This document shows, in pieces, positions 19,589-32,273 of a DNA stretch of 64,000 nt (the first letter of the stretch is position 1; each line of letters opens with the position of its first letter). This DNA is from Aureimonas sp. SA4125 (GTDB taxonomy: Bacteria; Pseudomonadota; Alphaproteobacteria; Rhizobiales; Rhizobiaceae), in NCBI RefSeq assembly GCF_019973775.1, contig NZ_AP025032.1, positions 2,976,001 through 3,040,000 on the forward strand, given 5' to 3'. The notes below the pieces were generated by a model. It did not search any database. It was not told the DNA's origin and saw only the letters and a program-made list of their open reading frames with translations. A program made the translations under genes and the position numbers.

Positions 19589-20374
19589 TCAGCTGCCGCA
19601 CGCCCCCAGACTTGCCCGACCGTCCGTTGCCGCAGCTTCCAGAAGGCCGGACAGATAGGACTTGGCTGCCGCACAGGCATCAACGAGCCCGTCGCCGCGT
19701 GCAAGCCGGACCGTGATCGCCGTGGCAAGGCGGCAGCCGGTACCGCGCAGATTCGCCGGCGCGCGCCGTGACGAAATGCGCCGGGGCGCGCCGCGGTGGC
19801 GCTCGAATAACAGGTCCTCAGCCTCCGCCCCTTCCGCATGCCCGCCCTTGACGAGAATCGCCCGTGCACCCGCGCGCATCACGACGACCGCCTGCTGCGC
19901 GACCGAGTCTGCCGGGGATGCGCCGAGGAGAAGCGACAGATGGCGCAGCTCCAGAAGGTTCGGCGTCACCAGCGCGGCGATGGGCAAGAGGCACTCGACG
20001 AGCGCCAGGACGCCCGCATCGTCCAGAAGCCTTGCCCCCGAGCTCGACATCAGCACGGGATCGACGACCACGGGGCGATGTTCGGCAAAATTGTGCAGCG
20101 TCGCGGCAACGGCCTCCACGCAGGCGGCGTTGCCCAGCATGCCGATCTTGATGCCGCGGACGAGCCCGTCGGCGAGCGCCATGTCGATCTGCCGGCAAAC
20201 AAGCGCCGGCGGCAGGTCGTGCACCGCGCCGACGGCGTCGTCTGTCTGGGCGGTCACGGCGGTGACCGCCCAGCGCAGCCTCGCCCCGAACGCCTCGGCC
20301 GCCAGAAGATCGGCCGCAAGGCCGGCGCCGCCGCTGGAATCCGATCCGGCAATGGCAAGGACCGTCGGCGCCAT
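19589..20374 (-). CDS. thiD: Hydroxymethylpyrimidine / phosphomethylpyrimidine kinase
   Basis: A 261-residue ribokinase-fold kinase that phosphorylates HMP and HMP-P to HMP-PP for thiamine synthesis. Seen in the sequence are the N-terminal AIAGSDSSGGAGLAADL, the substrate region AVTAVTAQ, DPVLMSSSG, TPNLLEL, VKGGHAEG and the anion-hole block GTGCRLATAI. The ATG overlaps the thiE stop (ATGA), making it the last gene of the thiCOSGED operon. Codon 262 is the stop. Confidence 0.95.
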   Translation of the reverse strand: MAPTVLAIAGSDSSGGAGLAADLLAAEAFGARLRWAVTAVTAQTDDAVGAVHDLPPALVCRQIDMALADGLVRGIKIGMLGNAACVEAVAATLHNFAEHRPVVVDPVLMSSSGARLLDDAGVLALVECLLPIAALVTPNLLELRHLSLLLGASPADSVAQQAVVVMRAGARAILVKGGHAEGAEAEDLLFERHRGAPRRISSRRAPANLRGTGCRLATAITVRLARGDGLVDACAAAKSYLSGLLEAAATDGRASLGACGS

Positions 20375-21039
20375 CACGGCAGCACTCGCCGCGGCATGGC
20401 CTCGGCGCGGATGGAGCCGGCACGCCGCGCCGCCGTCGCGTCGAGCCATTGCCGGCAGCGCGCTCCCGGATCGGCATGGCGGGTGATGTCGGTGACGACC
20501 GCGGCACTGTCGGCGCCTTCGGCAAAGACGAGCGGCAGCCGCTCCACCGTGACGCCGCCGATCGCGACGAGCGGCAGCGCGCCGATCCGGGCCCGCCAGG
20601 CGCGCAGGCGCTCGGGTGTCTGCGGTGCCCAGGGCATCTGTTTCAGGATGGTCGGCCAGATCGGTCCGAGCGCGACATAGTCGGGCCGGGCGGCCAGCGC
20701 GGTCTGCAGTTCGGCCTCGTCGTGGGTGGACAGGCCGAGTTTCACGCCGGCGCTTGAGATCGCGCCACGATCGGCCGCGGCGAGATCCTCCTGCCCGAGA
20801 TGGACGATGTCGCAGCCCTCCTCGATCGCCAGACGCCAGTGATCGTTGACGACGAGTTGGCAGCCATGCGCCGTGCAGACGGAGCGGGCAGCACGGATCT
20901 CGGCTCGCAGCGCCGGTGCCGGCAGGTCTTTCACCCTCAATTGCACGAGCCTGACGCCGAGCGGCACCAGCCGCTCGATCCACGCTGCCGTATCGACGAT
21001 AAGGTAGAACGGATCGAGCCGCAGCGGCGCCGCGCTCAC
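20374..21039 (-). CDS. thiE: Thiamine phosphate synthase
   Basis: A 221-residue TIM-barrel enzyme joining HMP-PP and thiazole phosphate to thiamine phosphate. Family blocks visible are [61 protein letters not shown] and [11 protein letters not shown]. The start is a GTG at 21037-21039 overlapping the thiG TGA by four bases (GTGA); there is no suitable ATG nearby and this gives the family length. A C-terminal tail of about 25 residues extends beyond the barrel. Confidence 0.94.
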
Positions 21040-21827
21040 GCCAGCACCGCCTGGCCGAACACCGGCGTCGAGGGGGCAGCCATGTCGCGCGGGTTCATCA
21101 GTCCTGCCTCGTAGCCGAGCCGTCCGGCCTCCACGGCAAGTGCAAAGGCCTTCGCCATCCCGGCGGGATCGTCGGCGCCCGCCACCGCCGTGTTCAGGAG
21201 CACGCCGTCGAAGCCGAGTTCCATCGCCGCAGCCGCATGCGAGGGAGCCCCGATGCCGGCGTCGATGATCATCGTGACACCAGGAAAATGCGCACGCAGC
21301 GAGCGCAGGCCGTAGACGTTGTTCAACCCGCGGGCCGAACCGATCGGCGCGCCCCAGGGCATCAGCACGCGGCAGCCGGCCCGCAGCAGGCGCTCGGCGG
21401 CGACCAGGTCCTCCGTCATATAGGGCAGAACGTCGAACCCCTCGCTGACAAGAATGCCGGCCGCCTCGACGAGGCCGAAAAGGTCGGGCTGCAGGGTATC
21501 GGCCTCGCCGATGACCTCGAGCTTGATCAGCGTCGTGCCAAAGACCTCGCGCGCCATGTGGGCGGTCGACACCGCCTCCTTCACCGAATGGCAACCGGCG
21601 GTGTTCGGCAGGATGGCGACGCCGAGGTCCCTCACCAGCTGCCAGAAGTTCTGGCCCGCGGCATCCTGCCCCGCCCCACTTTGCCGGCCGAGCGTTTCGC
21701 GGCGGAGCGACACGGTGACGAGCGCCGGGCCCGCCGCCCTCACAGCCCCGGCGAGGATCGCGGGCGAGGGATATTGCGCCGTGCCGAGCATCAGCCGCGA
21801 CGAAAAATTCTGTCCGTAGATGTCCAT
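21036..21827 (-). CDS. thiG: Thiazole synthase
   Basis: A 263-residue TIM-barrel enzyme forming the thiazole phosphate ring from deoxyxylulose phosphate, ThiS thiocarboxylate and dehydroglycine. The active-site Lys lies in LIKLEVIGE, with [21 protein letters not shown] and [12 protein letters not shown] also visible. GGGAGG sits five bases before the chosen ATG (21825-21827); this ribosome site is inside the end of thiS, so the two genes are closely coupled. It follows thiS by one base. Confidence 0.96.
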
Positions 21828-21828
21828 C

Positions 21829-22026
21829 TCAACCTCCCTGCATCGGCGCGAGGATCTCGACCGCATCGCCATCCAGAAGCCGCGTCCCGGGCCGGTCGCA
21901 TGCCGGCACGAATTCGCGGTTCACCGCGGTGCCGACGACCGCTCCGGCAAGACCGAGCTCCAACATGGCCTCGTCGAGTGTCCCGGCGCTGAGCTCCCGG
22001 CTTTCGCCATTGACGGTGATCCTCAT
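21829..22026 (-). CDS. thiS: Sulfur carrier protein ThiS
   Basis: A 65-residue ubiquitin-fold sulfur carrier ending in the required Gly-Gly (PMQGG), which is adenylated and thiocarboxylated to deliver sulfur to thiazole synthase. It begins [12 protein letters not shown], typical of ThiS. The ATG overlaps the thiO stop (ATGA) and the stop is one base from thiG. No thiF adenylyltransferase is seen in the operon, so a homologue elsewhere must activate it. Confidence 0.94.
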
Positions 22027-23060
22027 GCGACCCTCCTCGGTCCTGCGGCCGCCCTGATCTCGTCCGCGATGCGCTCGGCAAAGGACGGCGCGAGGAGAAA
22101 GCCGTGGCGGTAGAGGCCATTGAGGCTGAGACCTTCGGCTCCCCGCCCGATCCGGGGCAGGTTGTCGGGAAAGGCCGGTCGGAGGCCCGCGCCGGTCTCG
22201 ATGATCGCGGCCTCGCCAAAACCCGGATGCAGCGCCACGGCGGCGTTGAGGAGATCCATGATCGAGCGGGCGGTGATGGGGCCGGCCGCCGCACTCTCGA
22301 TCTCGGTCGCGCCCAGCATGAACACGTCCTTGCCGCGCGGCACGACATAGAGCGGATGGCGCGGATGCAGGAGCCGCACCGGCCGGGAAAGCGAGACGCC
22401 GGGGGCATGGAGGATCAGCATCTCGCCGCGGACATGCCGCAGCGCCGGGTCCGGCGCCGCCGAACCGCGGCAGTCGATCACCCGCGCACCTTTCCCCACC
22501 GCCAGGTGCACCGGGTCGACGGCGGCATTCATAACCAAGGTCCCGCCCAGTGCGATGAATCGCTCGGCCAGCGCTTCGAGGGCTGTTCGCGGATCGAGAT
22601 GGGCCTCGTCGGCGAAGAACAGGCCGGCGGCAAAGCGCCCGGCGAGATCCGGCTCGATGGCGGCAAGGCCGGCCGCGTCGAGAAGCTCTCCGCCCTCCGT
22701 CCGGCGGGCAAAACGCGCCACCTCCCCGGCGTCGCGCGAGAGCGCGACGACGAGGGTGCCGCGCCGTTCGACGCCGGGCACGCGGTCGGCCCACCACTCG
22801 ATGGCGGCGAGCCCCGGCGCAACGATCGAGGCATCCGCCTTTTCCGCCTCGCAATGCGGCGCCAGCATGCCCCCGGCAAGCCAGGATGCCGCGCCTTGCC
22901 CCAGCCTCGCGGTGCGGTCGTAGAGCGTGACGGGCATGCCGCGCTCGGCCAGCGTGACGGCCGTCGTAAGGCCGGCAACGCCCGCACCGACGATGGCGAT
23001 CGCCCCAATTCCCTCATGCCGAGCCTGTCGAAGCACGAGGGACCGGCACGCCCCCGGCAT
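22023..23060 (-). CDS. thiO: Glycine oxidase ThiO
   Basis: An FAD-dependent glycine oxidase of about 345 residues supplying dehydroglycine for thiazole formation. The FAD motif AIVGAGVAGLTTAV lies about 20 residues from the start, followed by LGQGAASWLAGGMLAPHCEAEKA in part, DPRTALEALAERF, RGEMLILHAPG and GLYRHGFLLAPSFAE near the end. The start is uncertain. The ATG at 23058-23060 gives a short N-terminal extension encoded by an interspersed repeat (23011-23041), and a GTG at 23067-23069 or a GTG inside the repeat are alternatives. It follows thiC by 11 bases. Confidence 0.92.
   Translation of the reverse strand: MPGACRSLVLRQARHEGIGAIAIVGAGVAGLTTAVTLAERGMPVTLYDRTARLGQGAASWLAGGMLAPHCEAEKADASIVAPGLAAIEWWADRVPGVERRGTLVVALSRDAGEVARFARRTEGGELLDAAGLAAIEPDLAGRFAAGLFFADEAHLDPRTALEALAERFIALGGTLVMNAAVDPVHLAVGKGARVIDCRGSAAPDPALRHVRGEMLILHAPGVSLSRPVRLLHPRHPLYVVPRGKDVFMLGATEIESAAAGPITARSIMDLLNAAVALHPGFGEAAIIETGAGLRPAFPDNLPRIGRGAEGLSLNGLYRHGFLLAPSFAERIADEIRAAAGPRRVA
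23011..23041. repeat. Interspersed palindromic repeat inside the 5' end of thiO
   Basis: A 31-base unit bounded by CCCTC and GAGGG with core GAGCCTGTCGAAGCAC. It matches the common alphaproteobacterial repeat usually found between genes (CCTTCGACAGGCTCAG type on the other strand). Here it falls within the thiO reading frame, where it would encode roughly VLRQARHEG just before the FAD-binding motif. A weaker partial match (GAGCCTGTCCGAACGAC) is near 5745-5761 between hutF and the lyase paralogue. Confidence 0.6.
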
Positions 23061-23071
23061 GCCCGACACCC

Positions 23072-25075
<2,004 letters not shown>

Positions 25076-25287: not shown

Positions 25288-26403
25288 ATGGCAGGCACAT
25301 CGTCCTTCGCTTCCGTCGTCCTCGTTCCGTCAGGCGGGAAAGGGGGCTTGGGAAGCATCGACTCGCGGGCGTCCTGTCCGCTGCTGGATCCCCTGGCCTC
25401 GCCATCGCGCGCGCCCCTGGAGGGCGAGTTCTGCCCGTTGCACGAGAGCCCGCTGGGCGTCGTCGGTCGTCTGGAGACGTTGGTCCGCGAACAGGAGGCG
25501 ATTCTGCGCCAGCAGGCCGACGCGCTTGCCGAGGGGCGCCGGAGCTTCGAGCGCGCGTCTGCCGCCGCCCGGATCGGGTTCTGGGAATGCCGGCTGGCAG
25601 ACAACGTGCTGACATGGTCGGATATGGTCTACGATCTCTTCGACATTCCCCAGGGATCGAGCCTCGATCGTGCGAAAACGGTCGAGTACTACAGCCCGGC
25701 CTCCAAGGAGGCGCTCAACGCTCTGCGGAGTCAGGCGATCGCGCAGCGTTCCGGCTTTTCGCTGGATGCCGAGATCATCACACCGAAGGGGCGGCACCGC
25801 TGGATCCGGCTGACGGCGACCGTCGAATCCGATCGAGGCGACGACGGCCGCATCTTCGGAATGAAGCAGGATATCACCGAGGAGAAGATCCGCGCCGACC
25901 GGACGCGGTTTATGGCAGAGTTCGATTGCATGACGGGACTGGCGAACCGTCACCGCTTCCAGGATCGGCTCTCCGCGAGCCAGAGCGACCCGGCGGCCGC
26001 CCTCGGCGCGCTGCTTCTCGTCGATCTCGACGGGTTCAAGCAGGTCAACGACACGTTCGGCCATGCGCTGGGAGACGCGTGCCTGATTGAAATGGCGGCG
26101 CGCCTTGCCAAAGAATGCAACGGCGCCGAACTCGTCGCACGGATCGGCGGCGACGAATTCGCCGTGCTGATTGGGCCCGATCTGAGCGATCTGGTGGTCG
26201 CCGGCTACGCTGCACGCATCGTCCACGCGCTGAGCCAGCCGGTCAAAACCGCCGATGCGACGGTCGCGATGAGCGCCTCTGTCGGCATCGCCTACGTCCG
26301 CGGGTGTCAGCCGTCCGAACTGTTTCGCAACGCCGATAGCGCCCTCTACGCAGCCAAGGCGGCCGGGCGGAACACATTTCGGTTTTTCCGGCAAGCCCGT
26401 TGA
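25288..26403 (+). CDS. PAS-GGDEF diguanylate cyclase
   Basis: A 371-residue soluble protein with a short coiled region (about 60-88), one PAS domain (about 90-200) and a GGDEF domain (about 205-370). The catalytic motif is intact as GGDEF at residues 287-291, with the metal Asp in VDLDGFKQVND, so it should make cyclic di-GMP. The product-inhibition site RxxD five residues before the motif is absent (NGAE instead), suggesting no classical feedback control. No phosphodiesterase EAL domain is present. The first 50 residues are low complexity and an internal start is possible. Confidence 0.88.
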   Translation: MAGTSSFASVVLVPSGGKGGLGSIDSRASCPLLDPLASPSRAPLEGEFCPLHESPLGVVGRLETLVREQEAILRQQADALAEGRRSFERASAAARIGFWECRLADNVLTWSDMVYDLFDIPQGSSLDRAKTVEYYSPASKEALNALRSQAIAQRSGFSLDAEIITPKGRHRWIRLTATVESDRGDDGRIFGMKQDITEEKIRADRTRFMAEFDCMTGLANRHRFQDRLSASQSDPAAALGALLLVDLDGFKQVNDTFGHALGDACLIEMAARLAKECNGAELVARIGGDEFAVLIGPDLSDLVVAGYAARIVHALSQPVKTADATVAMSASVGIAYVRGCQPSELFRNADSALYAAKAAGRNTFRFFRQAR

Positions 26404-26463: not shown

Positions 26464-27687
26464 ATGGACATCCCCGATGATTCACGCTTTAGCTCGGGCA
26501 TGACAGATCGATCGGGCGCCGAGACGCCGTCACGCCTTGCCGCCATCGCTGCGGCGACCGACCTTCGCGAAGGCGCCGAGGGCGTGGCACTGATCCTGCG
26601 CACGGCGTTCCGCGACGGCCCGCTGCTCCTGCGCGACCTGGCAAAGGCCGTGCGCATGCCGCTGCCGGTCGTCGGTGCCGTCCGGCGCGAACTGGAGCGG
26701 ACGGGGCTGCTCGATCGTGGCCAGGGCGTCGAGCTCAGCGTGACCGGCAAGGCGTTCTGCCGCGACACTCTCGGCATTTCCGCCCGGCACGATCCGCGCT
26801 GCGCATGCTGCCACGGGCACGGCGTCGTCGTGGCGCCGGAGCTGGCGCCGGCGCTGCGCCTCATCGAAGAGCACGCGGCCCTCGGCCCCCCGGTCGACGT
26901 GACGCTCGATCAGGCGCCCTGCACGCCGGAAACGGCCCTGCGGCGCGCGCTCGCGATGCACGAGGCCGGCGCGCTGGACGGGCGCTCGATCATCATTCTC
27001 GGCGACGACGATTCCATGTCCGTGGCGCTGACGCTGCTGGCTCGGGCTATCGGTGCAGCGCCGCGGCGGGTGACGGTCCTCGAGCTCGATCCCGGTCGCA
27101 TCGCCCATCTCGACGCCGCGCGGCAGCGGCACGGCCTCGATTTCGAGGTCATCGCCCATGACCTTCGCGATCCGCTGCCGGCGGATCTGCGCGGACGCTT
27201 CGACGTGTTCGAGACCGATCCGCCCTACACGGTCGACGGCATGAGCCTGTTCGTCTCGCGTGGTCTGGAGGCCCTGCGCTCCGAGCCCGGCCTGCCCGGC
27301 TTCCTGTCCTATGGCGATCTTGCCCCCGACGATCTCCTCGACCTGCAGTCGCGGCTGACGGACATGGGGCTCGTCGCGACGCGCATAAGACCCTCGTTCA
27401 ACGCCTATCAGGGCGCCTCCATCCTCGGCTCGGTCGGCCAGTTGATCGATCTGCGCACGACCCGCCGGACCAAGGCCCTGACGGAGGCGGAAGCGATCTT
27501 CGCCGCGCCGATCTATACCGGCGAGGTTCGCCCGCGCGAGCGGCGCTATCAATGCCGGGCCTGCGGCGCGGTCACCGGTATCGGAACGGGCGAAGCCTTC
27601 GCGACGATCGAAGCACTGAAGACGGCAGGCTGCCCGGCCTGCGGCGAGACCGTCTTCAAGCGCCTGCACGCCAAGACGACCTACTGA
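26464..27687 (+). CDS. Bis-aminopropyl spermidine synthase-like protein (BpsA family)
   Basis: A 407-residue protein of the BpsA / former DUF43 family. Characterised thermophile members transfer aminopropyl groups from decarboxylated AdoMet to spermidine, giving branched polyamines. It has a winged-helix-like N-terminal part (about 40-100), a CxxC at 113-116, a Rossmann methyltransferase-like core with GDDD at 180-183 and DPPYT at 252-256, and a C-terminal zinc ribbon with Cys 364/367 and 390/393. The GDDD and DPP motifs are the aminopropyl-acceptor and donor-site motifs of the family. It converges with the ACP gene, two bases apart. The start could instead be the ATG at 26500. The acceptor here is unknown. 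Confidence 0.82.
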   Translation: MDIPDDSRFSSGMTDRSGAETPSRLAAIAAATDLREGAEGVALILRTAFRDGPLLLRDLAKAVRMPLPVVGAVRRELERTGLLDRGQGVELSVTGKAFCRDTLGISARHDPRCACCHGHGVVVAPELAPALRLIEEHAALGPPVDVTLDQAPCTPETALRRALAMHEAGALDGRSIIILGDDDSMSVALTLLARAIGAAPRRVTVLELDPGRIAHLDAARQRHGLDFEVIAHDLRDPLPADLRGRFDVFETDPPYTVDGMSLFVSRGLEALRSEPGLPGFLSYGDLAPDDLLDLQSRLTDMGLVATRIRPSFNAYQGASILGSVGQLIDLRTTRRTKALTEAEAIFAAPIYTGEVRPRERRYQCRACGAVTGIGTGEAFATIEALKTAGCPACGETVFKRLHAKTTY

Positions 27688-27689
27688 CG

Positions 27690-27935
27690 CTATCGGCGCA
27701 AGGCTGCCGCCTCGAGGGCGGCGAGAAGTCCGCGGATGCCGCCCGCGGTCTCGATCTCCGCCATGGTCAGCGCAACGCCGAACTGCGCTTCGGCTGCCAG
27801 GACGATCCGGACCTGGCCGAAACTGTCCCAGGCGGCGATGTCGGCGCCCTGTGTTTCCAGGCCGAGGCTGGTCGCCGGCACTTGCAGCACGTCGGAGACG
27901 AGCTGGACGACGGCGTCGAGGTTTACATCACTCAC
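27690..27935 (-). CDS. Acyl carrier protein
   Basis: An 81-residue carrier protein with the 4'-phosphopantetheine attachment Ser in WDSFGQVRIV (about residue 41) and the usual four-helix pattern. It starts with a GTG at 27933-27935 that overlaps the stop of the FkbH-like gene (GTGA), so the two are translated together. This pairing is typical of FkbH systems, where the HAD protein loads a three-carbon glyceryl unit from 1,3-bisphosphoglycerate onto a dedicated ACP. It is not the fatty-acid AcpP, judging by sequence and context. Confidence 0.88.
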   Translation of the reverse strand: MSDVNLDAVVQLVSDVLQVPATSLGLETQGADIAAWDSFGQVRIVLAAEAQFGVALTMAEIETAGGIRGLLAALEAAALRR

Positions 27936-29638
27936 GCATGTCTCCCGTTCAGTCGATCGATCATCGCAATGCCCTGCGGCGGGCTGTCGAGTGCGGCGGC
28001 CCTGCCCGTCAGATCCACCTGCCATTCGCCATTGCGCTCGGCAAAGCCGTGGCGCGCCAGGCAATCGCGCGCCGGCTCATTGCGTTCGAGGATTTCGATC
28101 CGGCCGAGGATGCGCGTGAGACCGAGTTCCCTCGCCCGGAGTGCGAGGGCATGGAGCATGGCGCTCTCGACGCGCCGCTGCAGCGCACGGCAGCTGAGGC
28201 AGAAGGCGTCGATCATGGCGGCATCGCCGCGCTGCGACGCCAGTACCAGGCCGACGAGGCCATGCGCGCCGAATGCGTCGTCGAGCCGCGCCATGAAGTC
28301 GAGCCCGCTCTGCCGGGTGCCGAGCTGCACGAGATTCGGGCGAAGCGCGGTGAACCGGAACTGATTGACGCGCGCCGCAAGCTCGGCCGCACGTGGCAGG
28401 AGGTCGGTCGCAAGCGGCTCGATCGTCACCTCGGTCTTCAGGCTGTGAAGAAAAACCGCATCGTCCGCCGCATCCGCCCGCAACCGCTCGACGGCCGCCC
28501 TGCGACCGTACTGCTCGGCCCGCAGCGGCGCATCGGCAGGCTGCGCTCCCGCCAGCAGCGGGTCCGCCAGAAGCGCCTGCGCGAAACTCTCGCCGGCATA
28601 GCGGCGCACGTCCATGTCCGGAAAACGGGCGGCGACCTTGGCGCAATTCACCGGATCGTCGTCGATGAAGACCGTATGCCCGGACGAAAGTCCCAGCCTT
28701 TCCAACACGTCCGCGACGAGGCTCGGCTTGTCCGACCAGCCGATGGAGCAGGCGGAAAAGTCGTCGATGCCGAGCGGCGCGTCGTCGAGCGTCGCAAAAT
28801 GTCGCTCGACCTCGGCCGCATCGTTGCGACTGGCCAAGGCGAGGACGAACCCCCGTAGCCGAAGCGCTGCCAGCGCCTCCGCATAGGCGTAACGGAGGGT
28901 CGGCGCCCCGCCGCCCGCCTCTCCGAGGACGCCGCCCCACAGCGTCTCGTCGAGATCGGTGACGACGAGCTTGGGCGCCTTTCCCTTCAGCCGGGCAGCA
29001 AGGCCCGCCGCCGCATCGGCGAGCCGGTCGGCCGCATCGGGCTTCAAAATGGTACCGAAGGTCGACGCGAAACGGGTATCGAAGACCGCAGCCCCACCCG
29101 TCGGCAAGTCCAGCGGGATCACGCCATGGCCGGCCCCATGCGGTACCGCGCCGCCGGCGGAAAAGCGCGCGACGGCAACCGGCGCCAGCGTGCGTGCCGC
29201 GAGCCTTGCGGCGAGATCGGCAACGAGCGCATCGCTCTCGCCCGTCGCATCCGGCACGAAGACCAGGCTGAGGTCGGCGTCCGCAAGACGGTCCGACGAG
29301 GGATCGGCCAGCGTTGCGCGGAGGTCGAGAAGGCCTTCGATGGCGCGGATCTCAACGGAAAACCCGGCAATGGCAAAGGCAAGACGCAGGGTTTCTTCCA
29401 GCGCCTGCGGCTGCTGGGTGGTGACGAGCAGCAACCGGAACGGCTCGCCGAACGGTCTCGGCGCCTCGGCTGAGGCCAGACGCAGCAGCGACGCCGCCCG
29501 CGACGTCCCCAGAACGGCGCGTGCCTCGCGCAACTCCCGCCCCAGGGCACCTCGACCGATGGCGGCAGCGCCGGCGATCGCGCTCGCCGACGGCAGCGCG
29601 TCCCCGGACGGTACGAAGCGCCACCAGTCGGCGGTCAT
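27932..29638 (-). CDS. FkbH-like HAD-IIIC protein with C-terminal GNAT-like domain
   Basis: A 568-residue protein. The N-terminal 210 residues are an SGNH-like/FkbH N-domain. The HAD-IIIC domain follows, with catalytic DLDET at 228-232 in DLDETLWGGVLGE and acidic FIDDDPVNC about 320. The last 150 residues look like a GNAT acyltransferase fold (LVGLVLASQRGDAAMIDAF, RILGRIEILERNEPARDCLARHGF). FkbH proteins capture a glyceryl unit as glyceryl-S-ACP. The ATG overlaps the SpeD-like stop by one base and the stop overlaps the ACP start. The ACP partner next door strongly supports carrier-protein chemistry. The final acceptor is unknown. Confidence 0.85.
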   Translation of the reverse strand: MTADWWRFVPSGDALPSASAIAGAAAIGRGALGRELREARAVLGTSRAASLLRLASAEAPRPFGEPFRLLLVTTQQPQALEETLRLAFAIAGFSVEIRAIEGLLDLRATLADPSSDRLADADLSLVFVPDATGESDALVADLAARLAARTLAPVAVARFSAGGAVPHGAGHGVIPLDLPTGGAAVFDTRFASTFGTILKPDAADRLADAAAGLAARLKGKAPKLVVTDLDETLWGGVLGEAGGGAPTLRYAYAEALAALRLRGFVLALASRNDAAEVERHFATLDDAPLGIDDFSACSIGWSDKPSLVADVLERLGLSSGHTVFIDDDPVNCAKVAARFPDMDVRRYAGESFAQALLADPLLAGAQPADAPLRAEQYGRRAAVERLRADAADDAVFLHSLKTEVTIEPLATDLLPRAAELAARVNQFRFTALRPNLVQLGTRQSGLDFMARLDDAFGAHGLVGLVLASQRGDAAMIDAFCLSCRALQRRVESAMLHALALRARELGLTRILGRIEILERNEPARDCLARHGFAERNGEWQVDLTGRAAALDSPPQGIAMIDRLNGRHA

Positions 29639-30000
29639 CAGGCGACCGGCGTCTCGAGGGATTCGATCGAGCGCGTGACGTAGCTGCGTTCGACGAGACC
29701 GTCGGGGCAGAGCCAGCGCGCCACTTCGTCGACGGCCGCATCCTCCGACATGTCGGGATTGCACAGGAGGATGTCGACCAGCACCATTCGATATTCCGGC
29801 CAGGTCGTCAGCATGATGTGGCTCTCGGCGAGAAACACCACCAGCGTGATGCCGTGCGGCACGTAGCGCTGGGCGTGCTCGCCGATGATCGTCGCGCCGG
29901 CCGCCGTCGCCGCGGCGAGCGCCGCATCGCGCAAAACGATCTCGTCCTCGATCTGGGGACCGCAATTGCGCATGTCCGCCAGGACCTGCCGAATTTTCAT
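29638..30000 (-). CDS. SpeD-like pyruvoyl-dependent decarboxylase, divergent active site
   Basis: A 120-residue homologue of prokaryotic S-adenosylmethionine decarboxylase. It retains the self-cleavage Ser 60 in LAESH, WPEY (67-70) and Cys 80 in LLCNP (equivalent to the catalytic Cys of SpeD). The His of the usual HTWPE motif, needed for processing in characterised enzymes, is Thr 65 here (TTWPE). The GHH/D-rich N-terminal block of classical SpeD is also weak. SpeD homologues have been shown to evolve into arginine or ornithine decarboxylases, so the substrate is open. It heads a three-gene operon with the FkbH-like and ACP genes. Confidence 0.8.
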   Translation of the reverse strand: MKIRQVLADMRNCGPQIEDEIVLRDAALAAATAAGATIIGEHAQRYVPHGITLVVFLAESHIMLTTWPEYRMVLVDILLCNPDMSEDAAVDEVARWLCPDGLVERSYVTRSIESLETPVA

Positions 30001-30204
30001 GGCGTCACCATCCCTTGGGAGGCTTGTCGCCCGTCCCGGGGTCCGCAGCCCGTGTCGGCCGCGTCCTGCTTCGTCTGGCGGTAGCCCGCCGGGTGGGCTT
30101 TCTATAGGGGCTGCCCGGCAGAGCGGCAAGACTTGCGGAAGGCGGCGGCGGCTTGGTACGACATCCCGGCGCCGGAAAGCCCCGCGCCCTGGAAGAAAGC
30201 TGCG

Positions 30205-30759
30205 ATGTCCCGCGAGAACGAAACCGTCGATCCGGCCTCGCCCCACGGGTCTCCCTTTCGCCCGACACCAAAAATCCGCAACTTCAAGCCGGCCGACATC
30301 GATGCCGTCGCCGGCTTCGAGGCGGAAATCGCCGTCCGCTCCTTCGCCGAGGAGGCGGTGACCGATCTCGACCACTACCGCAAGAAGCTCGGCAAGCTCC
30401 TGAAATACGGCGACGACTGGACGAAGGTGCTCGTGCTGACGGACGACCGGGGAGCGGAGGCCGTCGTCGGCTGGGCCTGGGTCGCGCCGCGGCAGAACTT
30501 CATCACCGGCGATACCTATGCCGATTTCCGCAGCCTTTACGTCGACGGTGCCAAAGCCGGCCCGTCGGCCGCCATCATGCTCCTACGCGCCGTGCTGGCG
30601 CACTGCGAAGCGAAAGGTTTCACCCGCATCGTCGGCCGCACGGCAACCAGCAACGCCGCGATGCGCTCGCTCTACGCGCTGGCCGGATTCCAGGAGCGCC
30701 ATGTCGTCTACGAACTGGACATCGGCCCGTCGGCCGAAGGACGGCGCCCGACGGGCTGA
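30205..30759 (+). CDS. GNAT family N-acetyltransferase
   Basis: A 184-residue protein with the GNAT fold. The core shows FRSLYVDGAKAGPSAAIMLLRAVLAHCE as the acetyl-CoA-binding helix region, then IVGRTATSNAAMRSLYALAGFQER, the classical motif B with Asn and a Tyr. It is divergent from the SpeD-like gene, 204 bases away, so it may share a promoter region with that operon. Acylation of an amine product would fit the neighbouring polyamine-type genes, but that is inference. GGAAG lies eight to twelve bases before the chosen ATG. Confidence 0.8.
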   Translation: MSRENETVDPASPHGSPFRPTPKIRNFKPADIDAVAGFEAEIAVRSFAEEAVTDLDHYRKKLGKLLKYGDDWTKVLVLTDDRGAEAVVGWAWVAPRQNFITGDTYADFRSLYVDGAKAGPSAAIMLLRAVLAHCEAKGFTRIVGRTATSNAAMRSLYALAGFQERHVVYELDIGPSAEGRRPTG

Positions 30760-30777: not shown

Positions 30778-31539
30778 TCAGATCGAGCCGGCCTCGACCA
30801 TGAAGTTGTTCGCCGTGCACATCGCGGCATCGTCGGAGGCGAGAAAGAGCACCATGCGGGCGAGATAGACCGGCGCGATCTCGACGGGCAGGCACTGACG
30901 CTCGAGATTGGCCGCGAGCGATTCCGGGGTCACCCAGAGTTCCTTCTGGCGCTCGGTCATCACCCAGCCCGGCACGACCGTGTTCACCCGGATGAGGTGC
31001 TTGCCGAGGTCACGGGCGAAGGAACGCGTCATGCCGTGCACCGCCGACTTCGCCGTGGTGTAGACCGGCATGTTGCCGACAGCCTGCCACCAGGAGTTCG
31101 AGCCGAGATTGATGATCGAGCCCTTGCGCGCCGCGATCATCCCCGGCGCTACGGCCTGGATGGCAAAGAACATATGGCGAAGATTCGTGGCGATGCGCTC
31201 GTCGTAATAGTCGGGCGTGACGTCTTCCCAGCCATGCCTGTCGTCGCGGGCGGCATTGTTGACGAGAACGCCCGCCGGGCCGTTGGCGGCTTCGAGGGCC
31301 GAAAAGGCGGCCTTCAGTGCGTCGATATCCTTGAGATCGCAAGCCTCGAAGGCGACCCGCCCCCCTGCATCCGAGATCTCAGCGGCCAGCGCTCTGCCAC
31401 GCGCATCATCAATGTCGACGAACCCGACCTTGGCATCCTGCGCCGCAAACGCGCGGACGATGTCGGCCCCGATGCCCGAGGCACCTCCCGTGACGATGAC
31501 GGCGACGTTCTTCAAGCTGGGATAACTGGCAAACTGCAT
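30778..31539 (-). CDS. SDR family oxidoreductase
   Basis: A 253-residue short-chain dehydrogenase. The NAD(P) motif TGGASGIG is near residue 18, Asp 43 in FVDID suggests NAD preference, NNAA is near 95 and the catalytic Ser...YTTAK (about 160-164) is intact. VVPGWVMTERQKELWV is seen in sugar/polyol dehydrogenases of the family, such as L-arabinose or D-galactose 1-dehydrogenase types. The substrate cannot be fixed from sequence. It converges with the GNAT gene, 18 bases apart, and lies before the tspO gene on the same strand. Confidence 0.88.
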   Translation of the reverse strand: MQFASYPSLKNVAVIVTGGASGIGADIVRAFAAQDAKVGFVDIDDARGRALAAEISDAGGRVAFEACDLKDIDALKAAFSALEAANGPAGVLVNNAARDDRHGWEDVTPDYYDERIATNLRHMFFAIQAVAPGMIAARKGSIINLGSNSWWQAVGNMPVYTTAKSAVHGMTRSFARDLGKHLIRVNTVVPGWVMTERQKELWVTPESLAANLERQCLPVEIAPVYLARMVLFLASDDAAMCTANNFMVEAGSI

Positions 31540-31645: not shown

Positions 31646-32122
31646 TCAGGACGCGACAAAACTATTCGGATTACGGCGCCAGACCGAGCGGTTGAGGCAG
31701 CCGGCGATCGTTACCCAGCAGAGATAGGGCACGAGCAGCCAGGCGGCCGTCGCACTGATCGGCGCGAAGGCCGCGATGGTGGCGGCAATCGACAGCCAAA
31801 GCGCCACGAGGTCGAAGAAGGCGATGTCCGGACGTCGCCGACGGAAGAAGATGTAGGACCACAAACCGTTGAAAAGATACTGCAGGCCATAGGGAATGAA
31901 GGCCGCTGTCAGTCCGGCCGCGCCCCAGACGATCCAGCCGGAGACCGCAATCATCACGTAGAGCACCGACCAGACTAGGGGGAAGGCCCAGTTCGGTGGT
32001 GTCCAGGAAGGCTTTTCGAGGTCACGGTACCATTCATCCGGCTTGAAGATCGCACCGCTCGACGCGACGGCGAAGGCGATGACGATGAAGACGAAAAGCG
32101 CAAAGGCCGAGGCGAGGGTCAT
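31646..32122 (-). CDS. tspO: TspO/MBR family tryptophan-rich sensory protein
   Basis: A 158-residue protein with five hydrophobic helices and the family signature WYRDLEKPSWTPPNWAFPLVWSVLYVMIAVSGW (given here as a region around residues 28-60) plus WVTIAGCLNRSVWRRN at the end. TspO proteins bind tetrapyrroles and can regulate photosynthesis or stress responses in alphaproteobacteria. I chose the ATG at 32120-32122 (MTLASAF), because upstream in-frame residues lack conservation and overlap the divergent glycosyltransferase leader. Confidence 0.93.
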   Translation of the reverse strand: MTLASAFALFVFIVIAFAVASSGAIFKPDEWYRDLEKPSWTPPNWAFPLVWSVLYVMIAVSGWIVWGAAGLTAAFIPYGLQYLFNGLWSYIFFRRRRPDIAFFDLVALWLSIAATIAAFAPISATAAWLLVPYLCWVTIAGCLNRSVWRRNPNSFVAS

Positions 32123-32273
32123 CGGTCTGTCCGATCGGTTGAAGAGATGGCTGGAGATAGTGCAGCACAGCATCGCGTCAGTAGTGACACGTCGTCACCA
32201 CCGCGTCACGGCTTTGCCTGCGACCGGCAAAGCCGCTAAGGCAGACGACGTCAGTCGCCTCCCGGACACGCCC

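What the first reader, a model, noticed from the sequence alone, without database searches (positions are those of the whole stretch)
26464..30759. Candidate uncharacterised pathway: BpsA-like aminopropyltransferase with SpeD-like decarboxylase, FkbH-like HAD/GNAT protein, dedicated ACP and GNAT
A SpeD-like pyruvoyl decarboxylase, an FkbH-like protein and an acyl carrier protein form a minus-strand operon with 1-base and 4-base overlaps. A bis-aminopropyl-spermidine-synthase-like gene converges with it two bases away, and a GNAT gene diverges from it. Known families: SpeD makes the aminopropyl donor (or has become an amino-acid decarboxylase), BpsA attaches aminopropyl groups, FkbH loads a C3 glyceryl unit on ACP, and GNAT acylates amines. 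Combining polyamine chemistry with carrier-protein chemistry in five adjacent genes is not a standard polyamine operon. Inference: the locus makes an aminopropylated, glyceryl- or acyl-linked small molecule.
Basis: partly seen in the sequence, partly recalled or inferred. Interest (0 to 1): 0.8.

Follow-up and report, generated by a model that had tools for sequence, protein, structure and literature searches.

The report
Carrier-protein-linked polyamine gene cluster
Five neighbouring genes in an Aureimonas-like bacterium are kept together in its relatives and most likely make an unusual polyamine that is lengthened by an aminopropyl unit and then capped with a small acid handed over by a carrier protein, a combination I did not find described in the open-access papers I could search.

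Summary
In detail: coordinates, overlaps, 2-base convergence and all five family assignments are right. The cluster is real. All five genes are present in 10 of 10 Aurantimonadaceae-type genomes found with a ribbon-type BpsA (contiguous in 9).

(1) The wider-spread core is a triad, SpeD-BpsA-GNAT: it stands without FkbH/ACP in three same-order genomes, and natural fusions (BpsA+GNAT, BpsA+SpeD) tie its members together. FkbH+ACP looks like an addition. (2) Four of the 10 genomes carry a long form with about 11 extra biosynthetic genes in two arms flanking the same five genes.

The SpeD belongs to a subfamily with Thr/Ser where Thermotoga SpeD has His68. The BpsA has a zinc-ribbon tail instead of the acidic carrier tail. 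The GNAT lacks the CoA-loop Arg in the 10 FkbH/ACP-linked copies opened, although some copies of unknown context lack it too. No SpeE was found, so BpsA is the only visible user of dcAdoMet.

Best reading: dcAdoMet-dependent aminopropylation of a polyamine, then N-acylation with a C3 (glyceryl) unit from ACP. The first half is well supported, the second inferred; no product is known.

The parts
26464..27687 (+). BpsA-type aminopropyltransferase with C-terminal zinc ribbon (407 aa)
27690..27935 (-). Dedicated acyl carrier protein (81 aa, GTG start, Ser38 in WDS)
   Evidence: PF00550 30.5 bits; Ser invariant in 6 of 6 aligned
27932..29638 (-). FkbH-type HAD/acyltransferase protein (568 aa)
   Evidence: TIGR01686 186.9 bits; DLDxTLW, SRN, Lys304, DDD and SCRAL residues invariant in 6 of 6 aligned
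29638..30000 (-). SpeD-like pyruvoyl decarboxylase, Thr65 variant (120 aa)
   Evidence: PF02675 75.3 bits; residues aligned to Thermotoga SpeD; model pLDDT 94.6, closest fold Thermotoga SpeD
30205..30759 (+). GNAT acyltransferase, divergent from SpeD (184 aa from the ATG)
   Evidence: PF00583 24.5 bits; 66-84% identity to six relatives; CoA-loop Arg absent
30778..31539 (-). SDR dehydrogenase: constant flanking gene that marks the cluster's edge, not claimed as part of the pathway
   Evidence: Next to GNAT in the six short forms and in G002; outside the arm in the long form of G1002

Best explanation
The five genes encode a small dedicated pathway for an aminopropylated, N-acylated polyamine. 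Step 1 (inferred, well supported): the SpeD variant self-processes at Ser60 and makes decarboxylated AdoMet. Step 2 (inferred, well supported): the zinc-ribbon BpsA transfers aminopropyl from it to a polyamine; homospermidine, made by the HSS encoded elsewhere in the genome, or putrescine is the likeliest acceptor. Step 3 (inferred from family knowledge): FkbH loads a C3 glyceryl unit from 1,3-bisphosphoglycerate onto the dedicated ACP. Step 4 (inference): the stand-alone GNAT takes the acyl group from the ACP and caps an amine of the new polyamine. Shown here: gene content, conserved linkage, motifs, folds, no SpeE-family match, one SpeD, an HSS. Not shown: any activity or product.
For: Five-gene linkage in 10 of 10 Aurantimonadaceae-type genomes with ribbon-type BpsA. 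Triad SpeD-BpsA-GNAT in 3 of 3 order-level genomes opened. Fusions: BpsA+GNAT (P0066) and BpsA+SpeD with the canonical GVSG/ESH/IHTWPE signature (L069). Own genome: one SpeD, no SpeE-family match at E 0.001, HSS present. BpsA keeps GDDD, the Asp of TDPP and the Tyr of FNxY, which by my count of the alignment fall on Tk-BpsA Asp159/160, Asp225 and Tyr290 (residue roles from PMC12979288, section read). SpeD keeps the residues aligned to Thermotoga Ser63, Glu72 and Cys83, with Tyr at Phe49. GNAT loop Arg and Gly kept in 4 of 4 copies without FkbH/ACP and in 0 of 10 with them. FkbH+ACP are proposed to make glyceryl-ACP in tetromadurin biosynthesis (PMC7489565, passages). An acetylated branched polyamine is known in Thermococcus (PMC12979288, passage).
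Against: SpeD has Thr where the position equivalent to human His243 (equivalence recalled) helps complete pyruvoyl formation, and it misses the NCBIfam equivalog cut-off (67.9 of 75.65 bits). BpsA lacks the acidic C-terminal residues that carry aminopropyl in Tk-BpsA. The GNAT is a divergent transcription unit. Its loop change is no clean marker of FkbH/ACP: of 20 more distant catalogue copies of unknown context 6 lack the Arg and 13 lack the Arg-Gly pair, a basic residue (or Gln) sits one position earlier in 8 of the 10 FkbH/ACP-linked copies, and only 2 of the 4 triad or fusion copies have the full motif. FkbH and ACP are the least conserved proteins (46-69% and 40-73% to the window against 74-98% for SpeD). 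No acceptor for the C3 unit is identified; the DNA between SpeD and GNAT is not conserved.
Confidence: 0.4

Rival explanations
1. Two linked but chemically separate modules: SpeD-BpsA-GNAT make an acetylated aminopropyl polyamine with acetyl-CoA, while FkbH/ACP supply a C3 unit to another acceptor such as a polysaccharide or, in the long form, a larger metabolite.
For: Triad exists without FkbH/ACP. FkbH relatives occur in unrelated loci: 6 of 7 found, one (Granulicella) with an ACP-like frame beside it. Long-form arms hold a second ACP, AMP-ligase, GT2 and others. GNAT loop loss is also seen in some copies of unknown context.
Against: In the short form (6 of 10 genomes) none of the arm genes is linked, yet FkbH/ACP stay with SpeD (DegT relatives at 33-34% about 1 to 2.5 kb beyond the SDR in three of them are not counted as arm genes). 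The GNAT loop Arg is absent in 10 of 10 FkbH/ACP-linked copies and present in 4 of 4 without.
Confidence: 0.24
2. The SpeD variant is a neofunctionalised pyruvoyl decarboxylase of ornithine, arginine or another amino acid, as described for bacterial SpeD homologues, and BpsA acts with another donor or on its product.
For: A SpeD without SpeE is the sign used in PMC10407285 (abstract and parts 1-2 of 3 of the Results read) and is seen here. The His68 position is Thr/Ser in 120 of 120 listed relatives.
Against: BpsA needs dcAdoMet and no other SpeD was found in the genome. A natural BpsA-SpeD fusion carries the canonical AdoMetDC signature. The catalytic Cys and Glu and an aromatic at Phe49 are kept.
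Confidence: 0.17
3. The zinc ribbon makes this BpsA act on a macromolecule (RNA or protein) and GNAT then acylates that, so the locus is a modification system.
For: Ribbon in 120 of 120 listed relatives. After the BpsA chains, the next structural matches are RNA methyltransferases (METTL5).
Confidence: 0.1
4. Accidental neighbourhood of unrelated genes.
For: None found.
Against: Order and orientation kept over 40-70% protein identity while surrounding genes differ; fusions; shared catalogue contig lengths 8, 14 and 11 for the three gene pairs against about 0.6, 0.4 and 0.7 expected.
Confidence: 0.01

Closest known systems
BpsA branched-chain polyamine synthase system (Thermococcus, Thermus)
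   Same: PF01861 fold, GDDD motif, acceptor-site residues; needs dcAdoMet from SpeD; acetylated product known in Thermococcus
   Different: Alphaproteobacterium; zinc ribbon in place of the acidic carrier tail; dedicated SpeD variant, GNAT, FkbH and ACP
SpeD class 1b AdoMet decarboxylase and its SpeDA/SpeDC derivatives
   Same: Fold, pyruvoyl Ser, Glu72, Cys83 equivalents; solitary SpeD without SpeE
   Different: Thr/Ser for His68 and Thr for Ser55 in the 120 relatives listed; BpsA as the linked partner instead of the SpeE, HSS, SpeY or CASDH neighbours described for them
FkbH/ACP glyceryl-loading pairs (tetronate and methoxymalonate pathways)
   Same: FkbH with a stand-alone ACP, motif residues kept
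   Different: No FabH-like enzyme, no O-methyltransferase and no PKS in the five-gene form; polyamine genes instead

Membership tests
SpeD (AdoMet decarboxylase, class 1b) | Pfam AdoMet_dc over cut-off and SpeD fold | tested here: met
   75.3 against 25 bits; Foldseek top hits Thermotoga and Aquifex SpeD
SpeD (AdoMet decarboxylase, class 1b) | NCBIfam equivalog TIGR03330 cut-off | tested here: not met
   67.9 against 75.65 bits
SpeD (AdoMet decarboxylase, class 1b) | Pyruvoyl Ser, Glu72 and Cys83 equivalents | tested here: met
   Present in the window and in 120 of 120 listed relatives for each
SpeD (AdoMet decarboxylase, class 1b) | His68 processing residue | tested here: not met
   Thr in the window; Thr 103 and Ser 17 of 120 relatives; His in 11 of 11 readable of 15 weaker-scoring family SpeD places
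SpeD (AdoMet decarboxylase, class 1b) | Decarboxylates AdoMet | not testable with these tools
   Needs assay
BpsA | BpsA_C domain, GDDD motif, BpsA fold | tested here: met
BpsA | Acidic C-terminal aminopropyl-carrier cluster | tested here: not met
   Zinc ribbon instead; 3 acidic residues in the last 40
BpsA | Makes branched polyamine | not testable with these tools
   Needs assay and LC-MS
FkbH | FkbH domain over cut-off, motif residues, partner ACP | tested here: met
   186.9 against 146.65 bits; residues invariant 6 of 6; ACP gene overlaps by 4 bases
Tetronate or methoxymalonate operon | FabH-like enzyme, or two dehydrogenases plus O-methyltransferase | tested here: not met
   None among the five genes; only one SDR beside them
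SpeDA/SpeDC (SpeD-derived ADC/ODC) | SpeD without SpeE and with ADC or ODC activity | tested here: inconclusive
   No SpeE match, but BpsA needs dcAdoMet; activity untested

The most novel reading that the evidence does not exclude
A carrier-protein branch of polyamine metabolism: a dedicated FkbH/ACP pair charges a C3 acid, and a GNAT that has given up CoA binding passes it from ACP to a branched or aminopropylated homospermidine. The dcAdoMet comes from a SpeD subfamily that forms its pyruvoyl group with Thr/Ser in place of His. In Aurantimonas and Mangrovicella the product is built into a larger, radical-SAM-tailored natural product.
Probability: 0.22. Interest if true: 0.8.

Novelty: new variant of a known kind. 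Interest (0 to 1): 0.6.

Why it matters
It would join two chemistries that are treated as separate, polyamine extension and carrier-protein-bound acyl units, and explain why some alphaproteobacteria keep BpsA, whose branched products a 2026 review (PMC12979288, abstract) places predominantly in thermophiles. It also defines a testable SpeD subfamily with a changed processing residue, a BpsA subfamily with a different tail, and a natural comparison: the same five genes with and without two flanking arms, inside one genus.

Tried and rejected
Chance neighbourhood: rejected. Phage or plasmid origin: no confirmed BpsA relative in IMG/VR by two peptide patterns; no SpeD match in PLSDB; one distant BpsA-like match in Nonomuraea with no SpeD beside it. 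A conserved operator between SpeD and GNAT: the gap does not align. NRPS link of the BpsA-SpeD fusion in G1419: unrelated-looking genes lie between, so no claim. SpeE in the own genome: none at E 0.001; among the 13 other genomes of that call nine have hits of 20-33 bits or, in G819, up to 54 bits, not opened. Fifteen further class genomes with weak PF01861 hits (17.8-27.5 bits, one over the Pfam cut-off) were taken for ordinary methyltransferases and not opened. GNAT loop as a clean marker of FkbH/ACP: weakened on recount; for this I lowered the main confidence from 0.42 to 0.40 and the novel case from 0.25 to 0.22, and raised the two-module rival from 0.22 to 0.24. Literature: eight searches, of which I saw the listings; none showed this cluster; subscription papers are not covered. 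Papers: PMC12979288 abstract, one section and passages; PMC10407285 abstract and two of three parts of the Results (term search without a hit); PMC3975893, PMC7489565 and PMC12766979 passages only (the last-named is about an unrelated enzyme also called BpsA).

Caveats on counts: searches cover the best 120 of 128 SpeD, the best 120 of 390 BpsA and all 60 GNAT hits, collected by shared words, so they favour close relatives. In one search four of 22 family SpeD places were not read by my motif search, nor was one of the four distant hits. That the 14 genomes with weaker-scoring SpeD lack BpsA rests on their handle numbers lying in the sample (G684), whose rows without a match are mostly not printed. 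In one search the pattern G[DE]DD[ST] matched 101 of 120; GDDD with any next residue is in 118. One search used 119 of 120 SpeD contig lengths, as one hit has none.
Full report
What is there. The window lies in a 5.1 Mb genome (G000) whose nearest named relatives in the protein catalogue are Aureimonas; 'Aurantimonadaceae-type' below is my label for Aureimonas, Aurantimonas and Mangrovicella. SpeD-like, FkbH and ACP form one minus-strand operon with overlapping stops and starts; the BpsA-like gene ends two bases from the ACP gene; the GNAT ATG lies 204 bases from the SpeD start in the other direction. Each of the five passes a curated cut-off of at least one library.

Conservation. In a SpeD search of 40 genomes (own included), 10 matched; the five other genomes of the genus hit at 75-98% identity and the four others are distant. 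Opening the neighbourhoods gave the full five-gene order in G001, G003, G004 and G005, and in Mangrovicella endophytica (L012, the same contig as G855 by its coordinates); G002 is 65% complete and its contig ends after SpeD. A BpsA search of 394 genomes of the wider family found 11 with a match. Ten have all five genes (G000, G001, G003, G004, G005, G854, G855, G1002, G1097, G1164), in G1097 with about 5 kb inserted between BpsA and ACP. The eleventh, G947, has a different pair, SpeD plus a BpsA without the ribbon, and no GNAT, FkbH or ACP match in the 19 kb taken. The cluster is rare: one full-strength BpsA in 385 class genomes (a second, G047, passed the Pfam cut-off at 27.5 bits on a part match), 2 of 397 in the order and 2 of 398 in the phylum, the window's genome being one in each.

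A smaller core. In three order-level genomes (G790, G805, G819) the neighbourhood holds SpeD (50-57% identity), BpsA (44-47%) and GNAT (38-39%), with no FkbH or ACP match in the 19.9 kb taken from each. Some catalogue relatives at this distance are named Rhodopseudomonas. Of 60 genomes around G790 only these three had the BpsA. Two natural fusions support the functional tie: P0066 is a 599-residue BpsA with ribbon fused to a GNAT, and G1419, of another class, encodes a 501-residue BpsA with ribbon fused to a SpeD with the classical signature. In the protein catalogue, listed BpsA, SpeD and GNAT relatives share contig lengths far more often than jittered lengths do (8, 14, 11 against 0.6, 0.4, 0.7); this is circumstantial, and includes the Aurantimonadaceae-type contigs.

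A larger form. In 4 of the 10 genomes (G1002, G1164, G1097, G855) the five genes sit between two arms. The GNAT side has a PLP decarboxylase, an aminotransferase, a family-2 glycosyltransferase, a B12-binding radical SAM protein, a second ACP and a radical SAM protein; the BpsA side has PIG-L, AMP-ligase, DegT aminotransferase, Gfo/Idh and AsnB. Not every gene was seen in every genome, partly because the stretches end; of the GNAT-side arm of G1097 only the B12 radical SAM was seen. The five genes therefore behave as a unit that stays when both arms are missing. The B12 radical SAM is absent from G000 at E 1e-20; the other arm genes were looked for only in the window and the stretches taken.

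SpeD. Aligned to Thermotoga SpeD (1tlu, whose chain numbering gives the positions; roles partly from PMC3975893, passages, partly recalled), the window protein has Ser60 at the pyruvoyl Ser63, Glu69 at Glu72, Cys80 at Cys83, Tyr46 at Phe49, but Thr52 at Ser55 and Thr65 at His68. In the 120 listed relatives position 52 is Thr in 120 and position 65 is Thr in 103 and Ser in 17. A scan of 272 family genomes separates two groups: seven places at E 5.9e-33 or better carry Thr and all seven genomes have BpsA (in G947 without ribbon); of 15 weaker places in 14 genomes 11 could be read and all have His, and no BpsA was reported for these genomes. [quoted passage not shown] that is inference. The same paper notes that a Thermotoga S55A mutant was still activated. 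The AlphaFold model (pLDDT 94.6) is closest to Thermotoga SpeD.

FkbH, ACP, GNAT. FkbH keeps its motif residues and the ACP its Ser in 6 of 6 aligned. FkbH-like enzymes with a stand-alone ACP are proposed to make glyceryl-ACP in tetromadurin biosynthesis (PMC7489565, passages). In the GNAT CoA loop (R-x-x-G-x-A/G, recalled motif), Arg and Gly are kept in the four copies without FkbH/ACP (three genomes and the fusion; full motif in two) and in none of the ten opened copies with FkbH/ACP beside them. In the catalogue the 40 close relatives lack the Arg, while of 20 distant ones 14 keep it and 7 keep Arg and Gly. This fits a change of donor from CoA to ACP, but the FkbH/ACP-linked copies are one clade, a basic residue one position earlier may compensate in most of the ten, and some distant copies of unknown context lost the loop as well.

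Setting. The genome has one SpeD match, no spermidine-synthase family match, and a homospermidine synthase close to solved bacterial enzymes. General polyamine supply is thus plausibly covered by HSS, and the cluster is an addition whose dcAdoMet has one visible user, BpsA.

Verdict. The linkage and the first half of the pathway are well supported, the acylation half is a reasoned inference, and the product is unknown. Every protein has a known family; the combination and the deviations of SpeD and BpsA are what is new, hence a new variant of a known kind. In the listings of eight library searches I saw no description of it.

Noticed in passing
window 19589-24871: Thiamine biosynthesis genes (ThiD-, ThiE-, ThiG-, ThiO- and ThiC-like, recalled from the ORF translations) upstream of the cluster.
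   Followed up: no
window 25288-26403: GGDEF-type signalling gene (name recalled) on the same strand, 60 bases before BpsA; among the stretches compared it is kept beside BpsA only in the closest relative G003.
   Followed up: partly
L062:930-7688: The long-form cluster of G1002 lies near magnesium-chelatase-type and flavin amine-oxidoreductase-type genes, which by recall resemble a photosynthesis gene cluster.
   Followed up: partly
L061:8942-10449: G947 carries a SpeD-BpsA pair (BpsA without ribbon, SpeD with Thr at the His68 position) in a stretch with lower GC3 than the genes on one side of it.
   Followed up: partly
   Followed up: partly
L060:10472-14569: A 1365-residue open frame beginning like a HigA-type regulator (recalled) lies between BpsA and ACP in G1097.
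   Followed up: no
window 31646-32173: TspO-like gene (name recalled) beside the SDR; a similar frame also lies near the cluster in G1002 (L062:3267-3893).
   Followed up: no
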